Shown here: in pieces, positions 25,362 to 35,239 of the stretch
How positions within the stretch are numbered: the first letter of the stretch is position 1
Layout: each line of letters opens with the position of its first letter
Assembly: GCF_000814475.1 (NCBI RefSeq)
Contig: NZ_JSVC01000013.1
Coordinates: 124,001 to 188,000, forward strand
From: Flavihumibacter solisilvae
GTDB lineage: Bacteria; Bacteroidota; Bacteroidia; Chitinophagales; Chitinophagaceae
Direction: 5' to 3'
Length of the DNA: 64,000 bases
Translations under genes and position numbers: made by a program
The notes under the pieces: generated by a model
What the model was told of the DNA's origin: nothing
Seen by the model: only the letters and a program-made list of their open reading frames with translations
Database searches by the model: none

Positions 25362-25444
25362 TTACTTATTGACTTATTCAGCTGTTCACATTAAAATAAG
25401 TCTTCTTTTGTTCAGCCTCAATAAATTTTATTTAGTCTATAAAG

Positions 25445-25475
25445 TTGGTAGATTTAATTCCCTCCCATACATTTG
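25445..25475 (+). promoter_or_regulatory. Bacteroidota-type promoter driving the SAM-I riboswitch transcript
   Basis: TTG (25445-25447), 20 bp spacer, then TACATTTG (25468-25475), an exact TAnnTTTG -7 element. The expected start point near 25480-25483 lies just ahead of the riboswitch P1 stem at 25489. This placement is the main support. Confidence 0.65.
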
Positions 25476-25488
25476 CACTCGCAAGTCA

Positions 25489-25590
25489 CTTATCAAGAAA
25501 GGCTGAGGGAATGGCCCGATGAAGCCCTGGCAACCAGTTTCGCAATGAAGCAATGGTGCCAATTCCAACCTGCGCTGCAGGAGAGATAAG
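25489..25590 (+). promoter_or_regulatory. SAM-I (S-box) riboswitch
   Basis: The aptamer is bounded by P1 strands CTTATC (25489-25494) and GATAAG (25585-25590). Inside are the hallmark blocks AGGCTGAGGGAATGGCCC, GATGAAGCCC, GGCAACC, GGTGCCAATTCC and GAGAGATAAG in the right order. S-adenosylmethionine binding represses sulfur and methionine genes in known examples. The controlled gene here is the SusC/SusD pair at 25872-30491. A TTCACG/CGTGAA hairpin follows at 25607-25623 without a T-tract, so the expression platform is not obvious. Confidence 0.93.
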
Positions 25591-25717
25591 TACGGATTCC
25601 ATCCTTTTCACGCGTGCCGTGAAGTATAGGGTCTTTCCTGGAAAGTGGTTGCTCCCATATTAGCCATTAGTTAAATCAGAAAACGTGAAAGACGAAATCA
25701 AAGTCCCTGTCAGCAAA

Positions 25718-25768
25718 ATGAAGACTCGTATCATTAATTCCATGCATTGCTCCTGCATGCTGTGTTGA
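25718..25768 (+). CDS. Cys-rich 16-residue leader ORF between riboswitch and SusC
   Basis: ATG to TGA encodes MKTRIINSMHCSCMLC: three cysteines in the last six residues with the final one before the stop, plus two internal Met. An alternative GTG start at 25685 would give 27 residues. A hairpin CATGCA/TGCATG (25741-25759) overlaps the His-Cys-Ser-Cys-Met codons, and a possible weak GCTG/CAGC stem (25759-25783) is followed by six T (25784-25789). That is the layout of a Cys-codon attenuator, but it is inferred from sequence only; a purely chance ORF is possible. Confidence 0.5.
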   Translation: MKTRIINSMHCSCMLC

Positions 25769-25871
25769 TCTCCCTTTTCCAGCTTTTTTAAACCATAATG
25801 CATTGACCGGTAAACCCCGCCAGGATTTACCTGCAGGAATGCTATTCCCCAAACTTTTCCATTTAAGCTCT

Positions 25872-28800
25872 ATGCAAAAAATTCTAAGCCTTGTTTACGG
25901 AGCGGCATTACTTCTTGTTGCCGGCTCCCTCCAGGCACAAACGAAAACTATCAAAGGAACTGTAAAATCAGCTGATAACCAGCCACTGCCCGGTGTATCA
26001 GTTATTGCAAAAGATGGCAGCGCCTCCGCTGTTACCGATTCACTGGGAAATTTCCAGATCAGAGTTGCACCCAACAGCAGGCTTGTATTCAGTTCTGTCG
26101 GATTTAAAAAATTCGAATCGGCAATCACGACCGATGACCAGTCGCTGAGTATCCAGCTTGCACAAAGCGACCAGTCACTTAACGAAGTAGTGGTAACGGC
26201 GCTCGGAATCTCAAAACAAAAGAAGTCCCTCGGCTACGCCGTGCAGGAACTTAAAACAAAAGATCTCGCTGAAGCAAAAACAGCCAACCTGGTGAATGCG
26301 CTCGCAGGCAAGGTAGCCGGTGTGCGGATCACAAACAGCCAGGGCGATATGGGCTCTTCACGGATCATTATCCGCGGTGAGACATCCATCTCCGGCAATA
26401 ACCAGCCACTGTTTATCATCAACGGCATACCTGTAGATAACTCCCAGCTTGGTGCCGGTGGCTCGCGCGATTATGCAAATGCCATCGCCGACATTAATCC
26501 TGATGACATTGAATCACTCAGTGTTTTGAAAGGACCCAATGCCGCAGCACTTTACGGATCACGTGCAGCAGCCGGTGTTGTGCTGATCAAAACGAAGAGC
26601 GGTAGATCGAAGCAGGGACTGGGCATCACCGTTAATTCAGGGTTCTCGCTTGAAGACATCCTCGTGATGCCTAAGTACCAGAACTCCTATGGACAGGGAT
26701 CCGACGGAAAATTCAGCTACGTGGATGGAAAGGGTGGTGGCATCAACGACGGTGTCGACGAAAGCTGGGGCCCGCGGCTCGATGGTCGCCTTATCCCGCA
26801 GTTTTATTCCAACGGCGAACCTGTTCCGTTTGTGGCACACCCGGACAACGTAAAGGATTTTTTCCGCACCGGTTATATCCTGAATAACGGGATTTCTATT
26901 GCCGACGCTAATGACAAGATCGACTACCGTTTATCTTTCAATAATTTCAAGCAGCAGGGCATTATTCCGAATGCAAGCCAGGGTCGCAACAACATTTCAC
27001 TGAATACCAACCTGCGACTTACCTCCCGGCTTACACTCATTGCAGATGCAAATTTCTCCATACTGGATGCCGACAACCTGCCCGGTGCTGCCGGCCGCAG
27101 GGCGACGTCAACGATGTTGCAGTTTACCTGGTTCGGTCGCCAGGTGGATATAAATAAGCTGAAGCCTTACCGCGATGCCAATGGAGTTCCCTTCAACTGG
27201 AACAACAGTTATTACAGCAACCCTTACTTCATCGCATATGAAAATACGGTACAGCAACGCAGGACCCGTTTTATTGGTAAAGCCGGTTTTAACTATAAGA
27301 TCAGCGATGGACTGAACTTCAACTTCTTCAGCGGTTCCGATTATTACAACGATCGCCGCAAGATCAAAGTAGCCTATGGAACCAACGGTACTCCGTACGG
27401 TTCTTATGAAGAAGACGGGTACTCTGTTCATGAAAATAACACCGAGGCAACACTGAACTATAAACACAAAATCAACCGGGACTTTAGTCTCGATGTGGTT
27501 GCGGGAGGAAATATCCGTTCCCAGTATTATGAAGAAAATATTCAGCTGGCACCCCGCCTCGCAGTTGCCAATCTTTATACCCTTGCGAATTCACGCGACC
27601 CGCTGGTTTCTTCCAACTATTATAGTGAGCTGAAAGTGTACAGTGCATTTGCGTCGGCCCAGGTTGGTTACCGCAATTATGCATTTTTGAATCTTACGGC
27701 AAGGAATGACTGGTCTTCGACATTACCAGCTGAGAACAGGTCATATTTTTATCCTTCTATCAATGCCAGCTTCATCCCGACCGAAGCATTCGATATCCGT
27801 AATGAAGTGCTTACTTATGCAAAGGTGCGGGCCGGCTGGTCAAAAGTTGGTAAGGATGCTGCTCCATACCAGCTGAGAAACACTTTCGCCTTTAACGCGC
27901 CATTCGGATCCAATCCCCAGTTGATTGGTTCAGGAGTGGACCTGAATGAAGATCTCAAACCTGAAACAACTACTTCTGAAGAAGCGGGTGTTGAACTCGG
28001 TTTCTTCCATAACCGTGCACGGCTTGATGTTTCTGTCTATAATACCAACAGTACTGACCAGATCCTGAGTGTGGATGTGAGCCCGTCTACCGGTTATCGC
28101 CAGAAGCTCCTCAATGCCGGAAGTATCAGGAACCGCGGGGTTGAACTGCAACTGGGAGTAAGACCCATAGCGCGTGACTTTACGTGGGACATCGATCTTA
28201 ACTATGCCGCCAACAGGAGTGAAGTACTGGAGCTTGACAAGGAGGGAAGATTGAAGAATTACGTGATCGGTTCAAACTCAGCACAGGTGATTGCTTCGGT
28301 TGGACAACCATACGGCACCCTGTTCGGCAACGCTTTCCTGCGCAATGCAGACGGCCAGATCCTGGTGAATGCAAGCGGAGCTCCGCGGATCGATCCCAGT
28401 AAAAAGGTCCTTGGTAAGTTTACTCCTGATTGGGTGGGCGGTATCACCAATAGCTTTGGCTACAAAGGCATCACGCTGAGTGTGCTGATTGATGCCAGTG
28501 TGGGTGGCTCACTTTACAATGGTACTTATGCGACCGGTACTTACACCGGTGTGCTATCGACTACGTTGCCCGGCAGGGGAGCTGAGAACGGCGGATTGTA
28601 TTATTACTATCCCGGCGACAACAAGTCTAACGGTACCGTACAGTTGCCAAACGCCGGTGCTGCGCCTAATGGTGAAGTGGTTTATGACGATGGTATTATT
28701 TTTAATGGTGTCACTGACGATGGAAAAGCAAATACGAAAGTTCTTCCTGCACAGACTTATTATAAATCATTCCGGACCATCGACGAAGCAAATATTTTCG

Positions 28801-29045
28801 ATGCCACTTATGTGAAACTACGGGAAGTGAAATTGTCTTACAACCTGCCGAAAGCCTGGTTACGCCCGCTGCGACTGGTAGGTGCAAGCGTTTCAGCTGT
28901 GGGACGCAATCTCTGGATCATTCATACCGACGTTCCGCATATCGATCCCGAAACTGCATTCAACACAGGTAATGCACAGGGACTGGAAAGCCTGTCCAAC
29001 CCAACTGTGCGCAGTTATGGATTCAATGTTACTGTCAAATTTTAA
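25872..29045 (+). CDS. SusC/RagA-family TonB-linked outer-membrane receptor
   Basis: 1057 residues from the ATG at 25872 (MQKILSLVYGAALLLVAGSLQAQ signal peptide); the open frame extends upstream to a TTG at 25803 but without signal-peptide logic. N-terminal CarboxypepD_reg-like domain (TIKGTVKSADNQPLPGVSVIAK), plug domain (DQSLNEVVVTALGISKQKKSLGYAVQEL, IIIRGETSISGNNQPLFIINGIPVDN), then a 22-strand barrel ending NVTVKF. With SusD it forms a pedal-bin importer energised by TonB. Because the transcript starts with a SAM-I riboswitch, the imported nutrient is likely a methionine- or sulfur-containing compound or peptide rather than a glycan (inference). Confidence 0.95.
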   Translation: MQKILSLVYGAALLLVAGSLQAQTKTIKGTVKSADNQPLPGVSVIAKDGSASAVTDSLGNFQIRVAPNSRLVFSSVGFKKFESAITTDDQSLSIQLAQSDQSLNEVVVTALGISKQKKSLGYAVQELKTKDLAEAKTANLVNALAGKVAGVRITNSQGDMGSSRIIIRGETSISGNNQPLFIINGIPVDNSQLGAGGSRDYANAIADINPDDIESLSVLKGPNAAALYGSRAAAGVVLIKTKSGRSKQGLGITVNSGFSLEDILVMPKYQNSYGQGSDGKFSYVDGKGGGINDGVDESWGPRLDGRLIPQFYSNGEPVPFVAHPDNVKDFFRTGYILNNGISIADANDKIDYRLSFNNFKQQGIIPNASQGRNNISLNTNLRLTSRLTLIADANFSILDADNLPGAAGRRATSTMLQFTWFGRQVDINKLKPYRDANGVPFNWNNSYYSNPYFIAYENTVQQRRTRFIGKAGFNYKISDGLNFNFFSGSDYYNDRRKIKVAYGTNGTPYGSYEEDGYSVHENNTEATLNYKHKINRDFSLDVVAGGNIRSQYYEENIQLAPRLAVANLYTLANSRDPLVSSNYYSELKVYSAFASAQVGYRNYAFLNLTARNDWSSTLPAENRSYFYPSINASFIPTEAFDIRNEVLTYAKVRAGWSKVGKDAAPYQLRNTFAFNAPFGSNPQLIGSGVDLNEDLKPETTTSEEAGVELGFFHNRARLDVSVYNTNSTDQILSVDVSPSTGYRQKLLNAGSIRNRGVELQLGVRPIARDFTWDIDLNYAANRSEVLELDKEGRLKNYVIGSNSAQVIASVGQPYGTLFGNAFLRNADGQILVNASGAPRIDPSKKVLGKFTPDWVGGITNSFGYKGITLSVLIDASVGGSLYNGTYATGTYTGVLSTTLPGRGAENGGLYYYYPGDNKSNGTVQLPNAGAAPNGEVVYDDGIIFNGVTDDGKANTKVLPAQTYYKSFRTIDEANIFDATYVKLREVKLSYNLPKAWLRPLRLVGASVSAVGRNLWIIHTDVPHIDPETAFNTGNAQGLESLSNPTVRSYGFNVTVKF

Positions 29046-29054
29046 ACTACTACC

Positions 29055-30491
29055 ATGCGAAATACAAAGAACATATTGATATATAGCCTGCTCGCCTTGT
29101 CCATTGCGGGCTGCTCGAAAAAGTTGGATGAGACCAACAAAAATCCCAATGCCACAGAGAATGCGCAACCTGATTACCTGCTGACGGCAGCAATAAAAAC
29201 TTCAGTGGATGCGTACTGGGGTACTACGAATAATATGAATTCAAGTCTCCTGTTCATCCAGCATTGGGCAAAGATCCAGTACACGGAAGAAGACAGGTAT
29301 GTGTTTTCAAACAGCAGCTTTGCCAGTCTCTGGTCTACCTTGTACTCAACGACCATCAACAACCTTAATGTATTGTCAAAGCTCGGTTTGCAACAGGATA
29401 ATAAAAACTACCAGGGCGTGGCACTTACATTGCGTTCCTGGGCTTTTCTCCTGCTCACTGATGCGTATGGCGATATCCCATACAGCCAGGCAGGAAATAT
29501 CAAAGCATATGTAACCCCTGTTTACGACAGGCAGCAGGATGTTTACATTGGACTGTTGGCTGACCTCGCAACAGCGCAGTCACTGCTTGACCCCGCAGGT
29601 AAAACCATCGCAGGTGATGTGATCTATTCCGGCGATATTACCCGTTGGAAGAAATTCGCTAACGCGTTACGGTTAAGGATTGCCCTACGCATTGCAGACC
29701 GTGATGCAGATAAGGCGAGGATAGTTGTGAATGAAGTGAAAAGCCAGCCGGACTTGTTTTTCAGTGGCACTGGTGATATTGCGAAGCTGACTTACCTCAG
29801 CTCACCCAACCAGAACCCGGTAAATGCTTTATTTGAGACGAGGGATGACTATCGTGTCAGCAAATCAATAATCGACAAGCTGTTCGACCTGAATGATCCG
29901 CGGCTCGCCATTTATGCCAATAAAACGCAAACCACCACGCCGCAGGAATATATCGGGGTACCGAACGGTTTGACAAACTCCGATGCCAGCAATCTCGGGT
30001 TTGCCAAAACATCGAAGCCCGGTGCATATTTCCAGGCGGCGCAGGCACCTGCAGTTATATTCAGCGAGGCCGAGTTTCTCTTTGATCTCGCCGAGGCAGC
30101 AGCACGCGGGTATACAGCGGATGGTGCGGCGGATTTGTATGCGCAGGCTATCATGGCATCATTCAAACAATATGGCCTGACCAATGAGGCTGCAACTGCT
30201 TATCTCGCACAACCTAAAGTGGCCTATGACGCAACCGATTTCCGGAAGTCGATCGGTGAGCAGAAGTGGATCGCATTGTTTGGCCAGGGACTGGAGGCAT
30301 TCGCTGAATGGCGCAGGCTCGACAACCCGGTATTGCCGGCTGCCGTTGCGGGTGTATTGAATGGCGATATTCCCAAGCGGTTCATTTATCCTGGCACGGA
30401 GCAGTCGCTGAACGGCGATAACTACAAAGCAGCAGTAGCTAACCAGGGTGCCGACCTGTTGACCACCAAACTCTGGTTCGACGTTAAATAA
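29055..30491 (+). CDS. SusD/RagB-like substrate-binding lipoprotein
   Basis: 478 residues. Lipobox IAGC with acylated Cys in MRNTKNILIYSLLALSIAGC. The KLDETNKNPNATENAQPDYLLTAAIK start and repeated helix pairs (VALTLRSWAFLLLTDAYGDIPYSQA) belong to the SusD-like_2 TPR fold. It caps the SusC barrel from outside and captures the ligand. The SusC stop is 9 bp upstream, and a strong terminator follows at 30526. No hydrolases or other catabolic genes accompany the pair, so it is not a polysaccharide utilisation locus. Confidence 0.94.
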   Translation: MRNTKNILIYSLLALSIAGCSKKLDETNKNPNATENAQPDYLLTAAIKTSVDAYWGTTNNMNSSLLFIQHWAKIQYTEEDRYVFSNSSFASLWSTLYSTTINNLNVLSKLGLQQDNKNYQGVALTLRSWAFLLLTDAYGDIPYSQAGNIKAYVTPVYDRQQDVYIGLLADLATAQSLLDPAGKTIAGDVIYSGDITRWKKFANALRLRIALRIADRDADKARIVVNEVKSQPDLFFSGTGDIAKLTYLSSPNQNPVNALFETRDDYRVSKSIIDKLFDLNDPRLAIYANKTQTTTPQEYIGVPNGLTNSDASNLGFAKTSKPGAYFQAAQAPAVIFSEAEFLFDLAEAAARGYTADGAADLYAQAIMASFKQYGLTNEAATAYLAQPKVAYDATDFRKSIGEQKWIALFGQGLEAFAEWRRLDNPVLPAAVAGVLNGDIPKRFIYPGTEQSLNGDNYKAAVANQGADLLTTKLWFDVK

Positions 30492-30525
30492 GAATTTTCA
30501 CGGTTTACATTGTTCGTGTGTCCCG

Positions 30526-30568
30526 GGAGCGGTTCACTTAACCAGTGGCCGCTCCTTCGTTTTTTTTA
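30526..30568 (+). terminator. Intrinsic terminator of the SusC-SusD transcript
   Basis: GGAGCGG (30526-30532) and CCGCTCC (30549-30555) with an inner CACT/AGTG pairing form the stem; TTCG and eight consecutive T follow. It runs into the stop codon of the convergent NTF2-like gene. Confidence 0.85.
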
Positions 30569-34014: not shown

Positions 34015-34239
34015 GTGGCCACTAAATTCAAAGTAGGCGACCTGGTAAGCTGGAACTCCGAAGCCGGAAGGGTTTCAGGGACCATTATCAAAATTCACAA
34101 AGAGGATTTTGACTATAAGGGCTATACCCATCATGCAACGGAAGATGATCCACAGTATGAGATCAAAAGCAGTAAGACCGATCATATTGCAGCCCATAAA
34201 GGCTCGGCCCTCACAAAGCTTAAAAAAACTAACCGTTAA
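34015..34239 (+). CDS. HVA1/DUF2945-family Tudor-like small protein
   Basis: 74 residues from GTG 34015; the open frame begins earlier inside doxX, but the family normally starts at this point (TKFKVGDLVSWNSEAGRVSG). The remainder (GTIIKIHKEDFDYKGYTHHA, then YEIKSSKTDHIAAHKGSAL) is a single SH3/Tudor-like barrel. The family is often found with DNA-binding or stress genes; function unknown. Its end overlaps the convergent DUF4062 gene by 11 bp. Confidence 0.82.
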   Translation: MATKFKVGDLVSWNSEAGRVSGTIIKIHKEDFDYKGYTHHATEDDPQYEIKSSKTDHIAAHKGSALTKLKKTNR

Positions 34240-35239
34240 TCACCTGCAGGTTCTCAGTCACCAGGATCTCGGCAATTCTTTCAGGTGTTACGTTGTGTTC
34301 ACGTAAAAGGCGGACAGATTCACCGGTTCCGTTACGCGCAATATCAATAAACACATCCAGCGCCGTTAATTGCTGGTTGGAAGGCAATGCCTTGCTCATG
34401 CGTTTTAGTGACGTGGCGATGCAGTGCGATAGCCATGGCTCTTCATTGATGATGTATGGTTCGTTTACGATTGCTCCCGTCAATGGTTTCGGCAGCGCTT
34501 CAGCGGGGATGTTTTTGATGATGGCCTGCAATTCCGGGGTCGGATTAGTCACTATAGCGGCAAAGAGATCCCTGGTTTGGATGCCGGCATCTCCTTTCAT
34601 CCTGTTTTCGTTATACGGAACACTCAGGTAATTCTGCAACTCAGGGGTCATCCGGCCCCAGAGTTCTTTTAAGGTCCCGATCAATTCTTCGTCAGCCTTT
34701 GTTTTTGGTGCCGCAGGCTGTTTTTTCTGTTGAATGATATTATTCATTAACAGGCACAGGTGCTTTTGGATCTTGTCCTTGAAATCGTTGGGGTTCAGGT
34801 AGTCCCAGATCAGCGATTTTCCATTCAGTTCATTTTTGAACTTCAGCACTTTGCTCATCTGGTCGTTTTCTTCCGGGCTGCCAGGATAGAAAGGCTTTTT
34901 GCAGAAGTAGAACATAACATCGGCCACTTGTTTCTTTTGCCACGCTTCATATGCGATGTTATATTCTTCCTCCGTGCCGGACTCAGCGGTTAACGTTGGG
35001 GTACCAAATCGTTTCCACATAATCCCGATAAAGATCTGGTATGGTTTGGCAATAGCATTGATCAGTTCCTGCGGTTTGTTAGCAGAAGGATAGGCCTGTT
35101 CCTCGTACCGCCACAATTCAAGCTCATAGCCGAGCGGTGCCCCATGGGTCTGGTTTATTTCCGGGATGATATCTGAGAGTATATCCCGTTCTTTTTTTAC
35201 ATCGGATGGCGACGCTACAAATACGGTATATTTTTCCAT
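34229..35239 (-). CDS. DUF4062 (TIR-like fold) protein with C-terminal Clp-N-like helical region
   Basis: 336 residues. Residues about 3-110 are the DUF4062 domain: TVFVASPSDVKKERDILSDI, YELELWRYEE, and IFIGIMWKRFGTPT, a nucleotide-binding-like alpha/beta fold common at the N-terminus of signalling and defence proteins. The last about 150 residues are helical repeats (PELQAIIKNIPAEALP, LTALDVFIDIARNGTGESVRLLREHNVT) resembling the ClpN repeat. No ATPase domain follows, unlike many DUF4062 proteins. It lies 24 bp downstream of the DUF1003 gene on the same strand. Confidence 0.8.
   Translation of the reverse strand: MEKYTVFVASPSDVKKERDILSDIIPEINQTHGAPLGYELELWRYEEQAYPSANKPQELINAIAKPYQIFIGIMWKRFGTPTLTAESGTEEEYNIAYEAWQKKQVADVMFYFCKKPFYPGSPEENDQMSKVLKFKNELNGKSLIWDYLNPNDFKDKIQKHLCLLMNNIIQQKKQPAAPKTKADEELIGTLKELWGRMTPELQNYLSVPYNENRMKGDAGIQTRDLFAAIVTNPTPELQAIIKNIPAEALPKPLTGAIVNEPYIINEEPWLSHCIATSLKRMSKALPSNQQLTALDVFIDIARNGTGESVRLLREHNVTPERIAEILVTENLQVING

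What the first reader, a model, noticed from the sequence alone, without database searches (positions are those of the whole stretch)
25445..30568. SAM-I riboswitch controlling a SusC/SusD importer, a likely sulfur- or methionine-uptake system
Seen: an exact TAnnTTTG promoter, a complete SAM-I aptamer, then SusC, SusD and a strong terminator, with no glycan enzyme. SAM-I aptamers normally control methionine and sulfur genes, so this pair probably imports a sulfur-containing nutrient or peptide, not a polysaccharide. It is a self-contained regulated uptake unit.
Basis: partly seen in the sequence, partly recalled or inferred. Interest (0 to 1): 0.75.

Follow-up and report, generated by a model that had tools for sequence, protein, structure and literature searches.

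The report
Sulfur-sensing control of a nutrient importer
A bacterial outer-membrane importer of the kind usually linked to sugars appears to be switched on by shortage of sulfur amino acids, through an RNA switch that senses a methionine product, a tiny gene rich in methionine and cysteine, and a shared DNA control site, which hints at a sulfur-scavenging programme in this group of bacteria.

Summary
Confirmed: a full-length SAM-I riboswitch (RF00162, 86.3 bits) at 25487-25592, a TAnnTTTG promoter, SusC, SusD and a strong terminator, with no glycan enzyme in the unit. It is not a one-off: 58 of the 80 nearest SusD relatives have SAM-I upstream of SusC. (1) Between aptamer and SusC lies a leader ORF, MKTRIINSMHCSCMLC (25718-25768), with 5 Met/Cys in its last 8 residues; relatives often end in CCC or more, far above shuffles. 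In a Pedobacter clade a terminator hairpin overlaps the last Cys and stop codons, as in a leader-peptide attenuator. (2) A palindrome, TCTAY-N7-RTAGA, lies upstream of the promoter in 54 of 59 such loci. Elsewhere it precedes metY-metX, SusCD with an SrpI-type encapsulin and cysteine desulfurase, and SusCD with a sulfite-oxidase-family enzyme. Best reading: a sulfur-starvation-induced SusCD importer, probably of cysteine/methionine peptides or another organosulfur nutrient. Untested: substrate, SAM binding, leader translation. Against: the window itself shows no terminator after aptamer or leader, the nearest solved SusD is titled chitin-binding, and genome-wide counts of the palindrome do not exceed a reversed control.

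The parts
25434..25454 (.). palindrome AGTCTAYN7RTAGACT (1 mismatch; core TCTAYN7RTAGA exact), candidate operator of a sulfur regulon
   Evidence: 54 of 59 SAM-I+SusCD loci with at most 1 mismatch in the core; shuffles mean 1.3, max 6; own-genome sites
25468..25475 (+). TAnnTTTG promoter element (TACATTTG)
   Evidence: read; spaced 15 nt from the palindrome core
25487..25592 (+). SAM-I riboswitch aptamer
   Evidence: RF00162, 86.3 bits, complete
25718..25768 (+). leader ORF MKTRIINSMHCSCMLC, stop included
   Evidence: 2 of 5000 dinucleotide shuffles of the region do as well; same kind of ORF in relatives
25809..25848 (+). two short hairpins (GGTAAA/TTTACC and GGAAT/ATTCC) between leader and SusC; role unknown
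   Evidence: GGTAAA/TTTACC in the fold; the second is read from the sequence; weak resemblance to Pedobacter leaders
25872..29045 (+). SusC-type TonB-dependent receptor
   Evidence: Pfam Plug, TonB_dep_Rec, CarbopepD_reg; best solved relative BT_2264, E 4e-136
29055..30491 (+). SusD-type lipoprotein
   Evidence: PF12771 E 2.4e-106; AlphaFold2 model mean pLDDT 79.2
30525..30567 (+). intrinsic terminator
   Evidence: -20.1 kcal/mol, z -4.15, then T8

Best explanation
A SusCD outer-membrane importer for a sulfur-containing nutrient, made when the cell is short of sulfur amino acids. A palindromic operator of a sulfur regulon lies against the promoter. The 5' leader then carries two sensors in series: a SAM-I aptamer that should turn the operon down when SAM (hence methionine) is plentiful, and a short ORF ending in Met and Cys codons that should let the operon through when charged tRNA-Met or tRNA-Cys is scarce and ribosomes pause there. 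The nutrient is most likely cysteine- or methionine-containing peptides (or cystine/glutathione-like compounds) rather than a polysaccharide. Shown by sequence: aptamer, leader ORF, palindrome, SusC, SusD, terminator and their conservation. Inferred: the direction of each control, that the two sensors act together, the regulator, and the substrate.
For: SAM-I upstream of the orthologous SusC in 58 of 80 relatives, label clustered on the SusC tree (8 changes versus 17.2 shuffled). Leader ORF: at least 3 Cys in the last 10 residues in 36 of 78 regions versus mean 0.9, max 4 in shuffles, 1 of 78 on the reverse strand, 0 of 22 at other SusC genes; at least 4 Met+Cys in the last 8 in 37 of 77 versus 0.09. 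Pedobacter leaders: terminator over the Cys-stop codons, core pairs kept in 14-16 of 16. Palindrome 54 of 59, also before metY-metX, SusCD with encapsulin and cysteine desulfurase, SusCD with a sulfite-oxidase-family enzyme. Thioredoxin-like neighbours in 35 and 20 of 80 loci, cysteine desulfurase in 6. SusC nearest to peptide-bound BT_2264.
Against: No terminator found after aptamer or leader in the window; its leader RNA is no more stable than shuffles (z -0.62); forcing the aptamer's P1 costs about 10 kcal/mol in a model without SAM. Pairing of leader codons with downstream RNA is not general (mean z -0.29, 4 of 53 below -2). Palindrome numbers do not exceed the reversed pattern (34 versus 50 sites in 20 genomes; the control is swollen by one recurring tRNA-like match, as I read it). 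The nearest solved SusD by sequence and fold is Fjoh_4561, titled chitin-binding. The partner genes seen in relatives are not beside the window's SusCD. SAM-I precedes this SusC in only 2 of 17 family genomes that have it.
Confidence: 0.72

Rival explanations
1. An ordinary glycan-import SusCD pair that happens to lie behind a SAM-I riboswitch.
For: SusCD pairs are typically glycan importers (general knowledge); nearest solved SusD is titled chitin-binding; a BD-FAE-family hydrolase lies upstream, divergently.
Against: No glycan enzyme in the unit; riboswitch, leader ORF and palindrome conserved at orthologous loci, which chance would not keep.
Confidence: 0.12
2. A methionine-only system: the pair imports methionine or methionine peptides and only the SAM-I switch matters; the leader ORF is incidental.
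For: SAM-I in the family mostly precedes methionine genes.
Against: Leader ORFs are rich in Cys, often more than Met, and far above shuffles; relatives without SAM-I keep leader ORFs; neighbours are thiol and cysteine enzymes.
Confidence: 0.2
3. The RNA elements in the window are decaying: inherited with the SusCD unit but no longer switching it.
For: No terminator after aptamer or leader in the window, whereas 28 of 41 relatives have a hairpin and T run 29-43 nt after the aptamer (my count); most family orthologs lack SAM-I.
Against: The aptamer keeps a high score and the leader ORF is far from chance; nine relatives without any detected terminator keep the aptamer, so control may act on translation or through Rho.
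Confidence: 0.15

Closest known systems
SAM-I (S-box) riboswitch, Rfam RF00162
   Same: Complete aptamer above the curated score; in this family it mostly precedes methionine genes
   Different: Here it precedes an outer-membrane SusCD importer and is followed by a Met/Cys leader ORF
Cysteine leader ORFs of actinobacteria (PMC1262725, passages; mycobacterial polycysteine short ORFs, Canestrari 2020, seen only as a citation)
   Same: Short ORF with a run of Cys codons at its stop, before sulfur genes
   Different: Those in mycobacteria are titled leaderless; here the ORF follows a riboswitch, holds Met too, and in a Pedobacter clade overlaps a terminator; the phylum differs
SusCD peptide importer BT_2263/BT_2264
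   Same: Closest solved SusC by far (458.7 bits, next 180.8); solved with peptide (passage)
   Different: No riboswitch or leader was examined there; substrate of the window pair unknown
Cobalamin riboswitch before a TonB-dependent transporter (Flavobacterium psychrophilum, PMC9723704, passage)
   Same: Riboswitch in front of an outer-membrane importer in Bacteroidota
   Different: There the supposed cargo is the riboswitch's own ligand or its precursors; here the ligand is an end product of the supposed cargo, and a leader ORF is added

Membership tests
SAM-I riboswitch RF00162 | covariance score above gathering, full length | tested here: met
   86.3 versus 44.4 bits, 1-108 of 108
SAM-I riboswitch RF00162 | binds SAM and changes expression | not testable with these tools
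   needs in-line probing or a reporter
SAM-I riboswitch RF00162 | recognisable expression platform | tested here: inconclusive
   none found in the window; terminator 29-43 nt after the aptamer in 28 of 41 relatives (my count)
SusCD importer | SusC (plug and barrel) with adjacent SusD | tested here: met
Polysaccharide utilization locus | carbohydrate-active enzyme in the unit | tested here: not met
   none between promoter and terminator
Leader-peptide attenuator | short ORF with regulatory codons near its stop | tested here: met
   MKTRIINSMHCSCMLC; 2 of 5000 shuffles
Leader-peptide attenuator | terminator that competes with the translated codons | tested here: not met
   not found in the window; present in 16 aligned Pedobacter leaders
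Leader-peptide attenuator | ORF is translated and its codons set expression | not testable with these tools
   needs ribosome profiling and codon mutants
Mycobacterial-type polycysteine short ORF | leaderless ORF at the transcript's 5' end | tested here: not met
   in the window the ORF starts about 240 nt after the promoter element, behind the aptamer
Rrf2-type sulfur regulon | operator bound by an Rrf2 protein | tested here: inconclusive
   an Rrf2 gene lies near one palindrome (L297); own genome has 7 Rrf2 matches, 6 above cut-off; no link to this site shown

The most novel reading that the evidence does not exclude
Bacteroidota of at least Sphingobacteriaceae and Chitinophagaceae have an undescribed sulfur-scavenging regulon with a common operator, in which SusCD and TonB importers, and metY, stand behind a tandem gate: a SAM-I riboswitch followed by a cysteine/methionine leader-peptide attenuator. 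The gate opens when SAM is low and charged tRNA-Cys or tRNA-Met is short, so some SusCD pairs are organosulfur importers feeding cysteine desulfurases, in one relative within one operon with an SrpI-type encapsulin.
Probability: 0.5. Interest if true: 0.85.

Novelty: new variant of a known kind. Interest (0 to 1): 0.72.

Why it matters
SusCD pairs are read by default as glycan importers; this gives a sequence-based way to pick out a likely sulfur-importing subset. It puts two RNA sensors for two sulfur amino acids in one leader, and brings cysteine leader ORFs, which I know from actinobacteria, into Bacteroidota together with a candidate operator that ties in methionine synthesis, cysteine desulfurases and an encapsulin. 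It can be tested directly in culturable Pedobacter and Mucilaginibacter species.

Tried and rejected
Poly-Cys codons before a stop across the own genome (54 hits on both strands versus 15 for the reversed pattern): of the 30 loci given, 28 lie in a long ORF, one does not and one was not located by my script, so the bare pattern was dropped. Long-range pairing of leader codons with RNA before SusC: not supported (53 loci with at least 3 Met/Cys, mean z -0.29, window z -1.6). Palindrome counts as genome-wide enrichment: not supported (own genome 5 versus 3 at 1 mismatch, 250 versus 480 at 3; 34 versus 50 over 20 genomes, though exact matches are 7 versus 2). Position was used instead: 14 of 19 forward sites examined are intergenic versus 8 of 19 controls, 13 versus 4 near a gene start. 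That forward set holds 15 of the 34 sites plus 4 of the 5 own-genome sites; my script labels 5 of 19 versus 0 of 19 as receptor or CarboxypepD-like, by eye I count 9 versus 1 or 2. Palindrome in the own cysteine gene region (L296): none within 2 mismatches. SusD fold to settle the substrate: the list mixes glycan binders and BT_2263. In some searches some leaders lie outside the fixed 260 or 330 nt, so those counts are low; L054, L077 and L078 (no SusC start on the contig) were dropped. In one search, 12 of 138 family SAM-I loci could not be oriented and were left out; two (L210, L212) are receptor loci known. The relatives are the best 80 of 297, so 58 of 80 holds for close relatives. Not done: SusC-SusD complex modelling, the second structure job, scans of viral or metagenome contigs.
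Full report
OBSERVATION. The window carries one Rfam match at gathering score, RF00162 (SAM-I) at 25487-25592 +, 86.3 bits, complete. TACATTTG at 25468-25475 fits TAnnTTTG. SusC and SusD follow; SusC best starts at ATG 25872. A terminator with stem 30525-30556 folds at -20.1 kcal/mol, z -4.15. The own genome has two SAM-I copies; the other precedes a Cys/Met-metabolism PLP enzyme.

NOT A ONE-OFF. In the same family 118 of 147 genomes have SAM-I, 138 hits. tblastn of the window SusC and SusD against all 138 loci finds a receptor in four: the window (L001), L177 (64% identical SusC plus SusD), and more distant SusC proteins in L210 and L212 (29 of these loci reach only about 1.5 kb past the aptamer). 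In the other direction, the best 80 of 297 SusD relatives in named genomes (Pedobacter, Mucilaginibacter, Sediminibacterium and others) were searched with a model built from 31 aptamers: 62 matches. 58 of the 80 loci have the aptamer on the coding strand upstream of SusC, 41 within 420 nt and 17 further off; 19 lack it there (one, L047, has only about 310 nt upstream) and 3 are truncated. Rfam itself confirms 7 of 7 tested. On a SusC tree the SAM-I label needs 8 changes versus 17.2 for shuffled labels (0 of 500 as low); the window falls in a 34-row, mostly Pedobacter clade with 31 SAM-I rows, on a long branch whose place is unsure. In the own family 17 of 195 genomes have this SusC (E at most 1e-60), and SAM-I lies before it in 2. 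The placement beside Pedobacter and the patchy presence would fit transfer of the unit with its riboswitch; this is inference.

LEADER ORF. Between aptamer and SusC the window encodes MKTRIINSMHCSCMLC (25718-25768). Relatives have short ORFs there ending in Cys and Met, such as CCCCCSAY (L032), SMRCCC (L084), MCCFC (L070), MPGMCCCCCC (L102), RMRMPC (L058); some lie in loci without SAM-I, e.g. CMRCCCMC (L051). Taking the best ORF in the 260 nt before SusC, at least 3 Cys in the last 10 residues occur in 36 of 78 regions, against a mean of 0.9 (max 4) in 100 dinucleotide shuffles, 1 of 78 on the reverse strand and 0 of 22 other SusC genes. With Met counted, at least 4 of the last 8 in 37 of 77 regions versus 0.09 (max 1); the window alone is matched by 2 of 5000 shuffles.

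ATTENUATION IN RELATIVES. Of the 41 loci with aptamer and SusC close together, 32 have a terminator-like hairpin (15 of 41 after one simple shuffle each); by my reading 28 have one 29-43 nt after the aptamer. In 16 aligned Pedobacter leaders a second hairpin, CCTGTTA/TAACAGG, lies with its 5' arm on the last Cys codon and the stop of most leaders; its seven core pairs hold in 14 to 16 sequences. A ribosome paused at those codons would keep it from forming: inference, but the textbook layout of a leader-peptide attenuator. The window has no such hairpin by the same scan; its leader RNA is not unusually stable, the aptamer's P1 costs about 10 kcal/mol in a model without SAM, and codon pairing with downstream RNA is not general. 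Translation or Rho could be the target there.

PALINDROME. Upstream of the promoter lies TCTATAAAGTTGGTAGA. The core TCTAY-N7-RTAGA occurs with at most 1 mismatch in 54 of 59 SAM-I+SusCD loci including the window (26 exact; shuffles mean 1.3, max 6) and in 13 of 18 loci without SAM-I (shuffles mean 1.2, max 5), but in 0 of 30 SAM-I loci that precede other genes; in 54 loci the gap to TAnnTTTG is mostly 17-18 (30) or 7-8 nt (16), one helical turn apart. In the larger family set it precedes SAM-I in 2 of 67 metB/C-like loci. In the own genome the 21-bp form with at most 1 mismatch gives 5 sites at three loci: this one; a SusC gene with a SusD-like gene (read by eye), cytochrome c, a sulfite-oxidase-family molybdoenzyme and a PF03601 (YeiH-type) protein, which also has a Cys leader, MKKLQTRAAQRRMVDVRYICFISTYCC; and a TonB receptor followed by a carbonic anhydrase. 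Same-genus and same-order genomes add a TlpA-like gene and metY-metX (L298); SusCD (by eye) with rhodanese, SrpI-type encapsulin (PF19307, E 1.3e-106) and cysteine desulfurase behind a Cys leader (L299); a SAM hydroxide adenosyltransferase plus a receptor (L300); a receptor with palindrome, SAM-I and Cys leader together (L301); and a CitMHS/Na-sulfate-symporter-like transporter downstream of an Rrf2 gene (L297). Other palindromes lie beside genes without an evident sulfur role, such as membrane proteins in L281, L283 and L286. SrpI and its desulfurase rise on sulfur starvation in Synechococcus (PMC8049743, abstract and passages). Site numbers do not exceed the reversed pattern, so the case rests on position and neighbours; 14 of 19 examined sites are intergenic versus 8 of 19 controls.

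NEIGHBOURS AND SUBSTRATE. 35 of 80 relatives have a thioredoxin-like CxxC protein next to or near SusCD and 20 a smaller AhpC/TSA-type one, which in 16 of the 17 loci with a distant aptamer lies directly before SusC (Pfam on single members). Cysteine desulfurase genes cluster in 6 loci; two operons (L081, L086) start with one behind SAM-I, and in L080, L098 and L102 SAM-I precedes a separate one. None of these is beside the window's SusCD. The best solved SusC relative is BT_2264, solved with peptide; the best solved SusD relative, by sequence and fold, is Fjoh_4561, titled chitin-binding. So the protein families do not settle the cargo; the regulation argues for cysteine- or methionine-containing peptides, cystine or glutathione.

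TANDEM GATE BEYOND SusCD. In the family survey SAM-I plus a Met/Cys leader also precedes metY: 16 of 28 metY loci, 0 of 67 metB/C-like, 0 of 8 homoserine dehydrogenase, 1 of 5 metX, 1 of 1 TonB and 3 of 17 other (the window among them), with 12 of 138 not classified (classes by sequence motif). The combination is thus a recurrent module.

LITERATURE. Ten searches for SAM riboswitch with TonB/SusC, cysteine leader peptides, Rrf2 sulfur regulons and related terms listed no paper that, from title and start of abstract, describes this. Most lists were capped, and only open-licence PMC text is held, so absence from print is not shown. Leader ORFs with Cys runs are described for actinobacteria (PMC1262725, passages). 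A flavobacterial transcriptome reports clues for leader-peptide attenuation before amino-acid operons, without naming cysteine in the passage I saw (PMC9723704). A 2007 riboswitch survey mentions SAM-I in Bacteroidetes and nowhere TonB (PMC2258182, passages).

Noticed in passing
L277 4568-16487 (same genome, contig C40): A second SusC gene with palindrome and Cys leader, followed by a SusD-like gene, two proteins without Pfam match, cytochrome c, a sulfite-oxidase-family enzyme and a PF03601 protein: a candidate sulfonate or sulfite-generating utilization operon.
   Followed up: partly
L299 7303-18387 (same-genus genome G148): Palindrome and Cys leader before SusC, SusD, rhodanese, SrpI-type encapsulin and cysteine desulfurase: an encapsulin operon with its own importer.
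   Followed up: partly
L005, L015, L140, L156, L181 and other family loci: SAM-I followed by a Cys/Met leader ORF (often ending CCMP) before metY; 16 of 28 metY loci.
   Followed up: partly
L080, L098, L102 (Mucilaginibacter): SAM-I before a separate cysteine desulfurase near SusCD; in L082 the aptamer is placed alike but the contig ends.
   Followed up: no
L057 5740-5800 and similar; window 25809-25848: A hairpin followed by GGAATTGNTTTGCC-like sequence precedes SusC in many Pedobacter loci, with a weaker likeness in the window; possible further RNA element (by eye).
   Followed up: no
L300 3119-6850 (G152): Palindrome before a SAM hydroxide adenosyltransferase with a signal-peptide-like start and a receptor-like gene: possible scavenging of SAM.
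   Followed up: no
L276 2353-5791 and L278 4015-4617 (same genome): Palindromes beside a TonB receptor followed by a beta-carbonic anhydrase, and (2 mismatches) beside another Pro_CA gene.
   Followed up: no
L296 3034-5964 (same genome): A receptor-like gene lies inside the sulfate/cysteine assimilation cluster between the cysD-like and later genes (by eye).
   Followed up: no
window 34229-35239: A DUF4062 protein gene.
   Followed up: no
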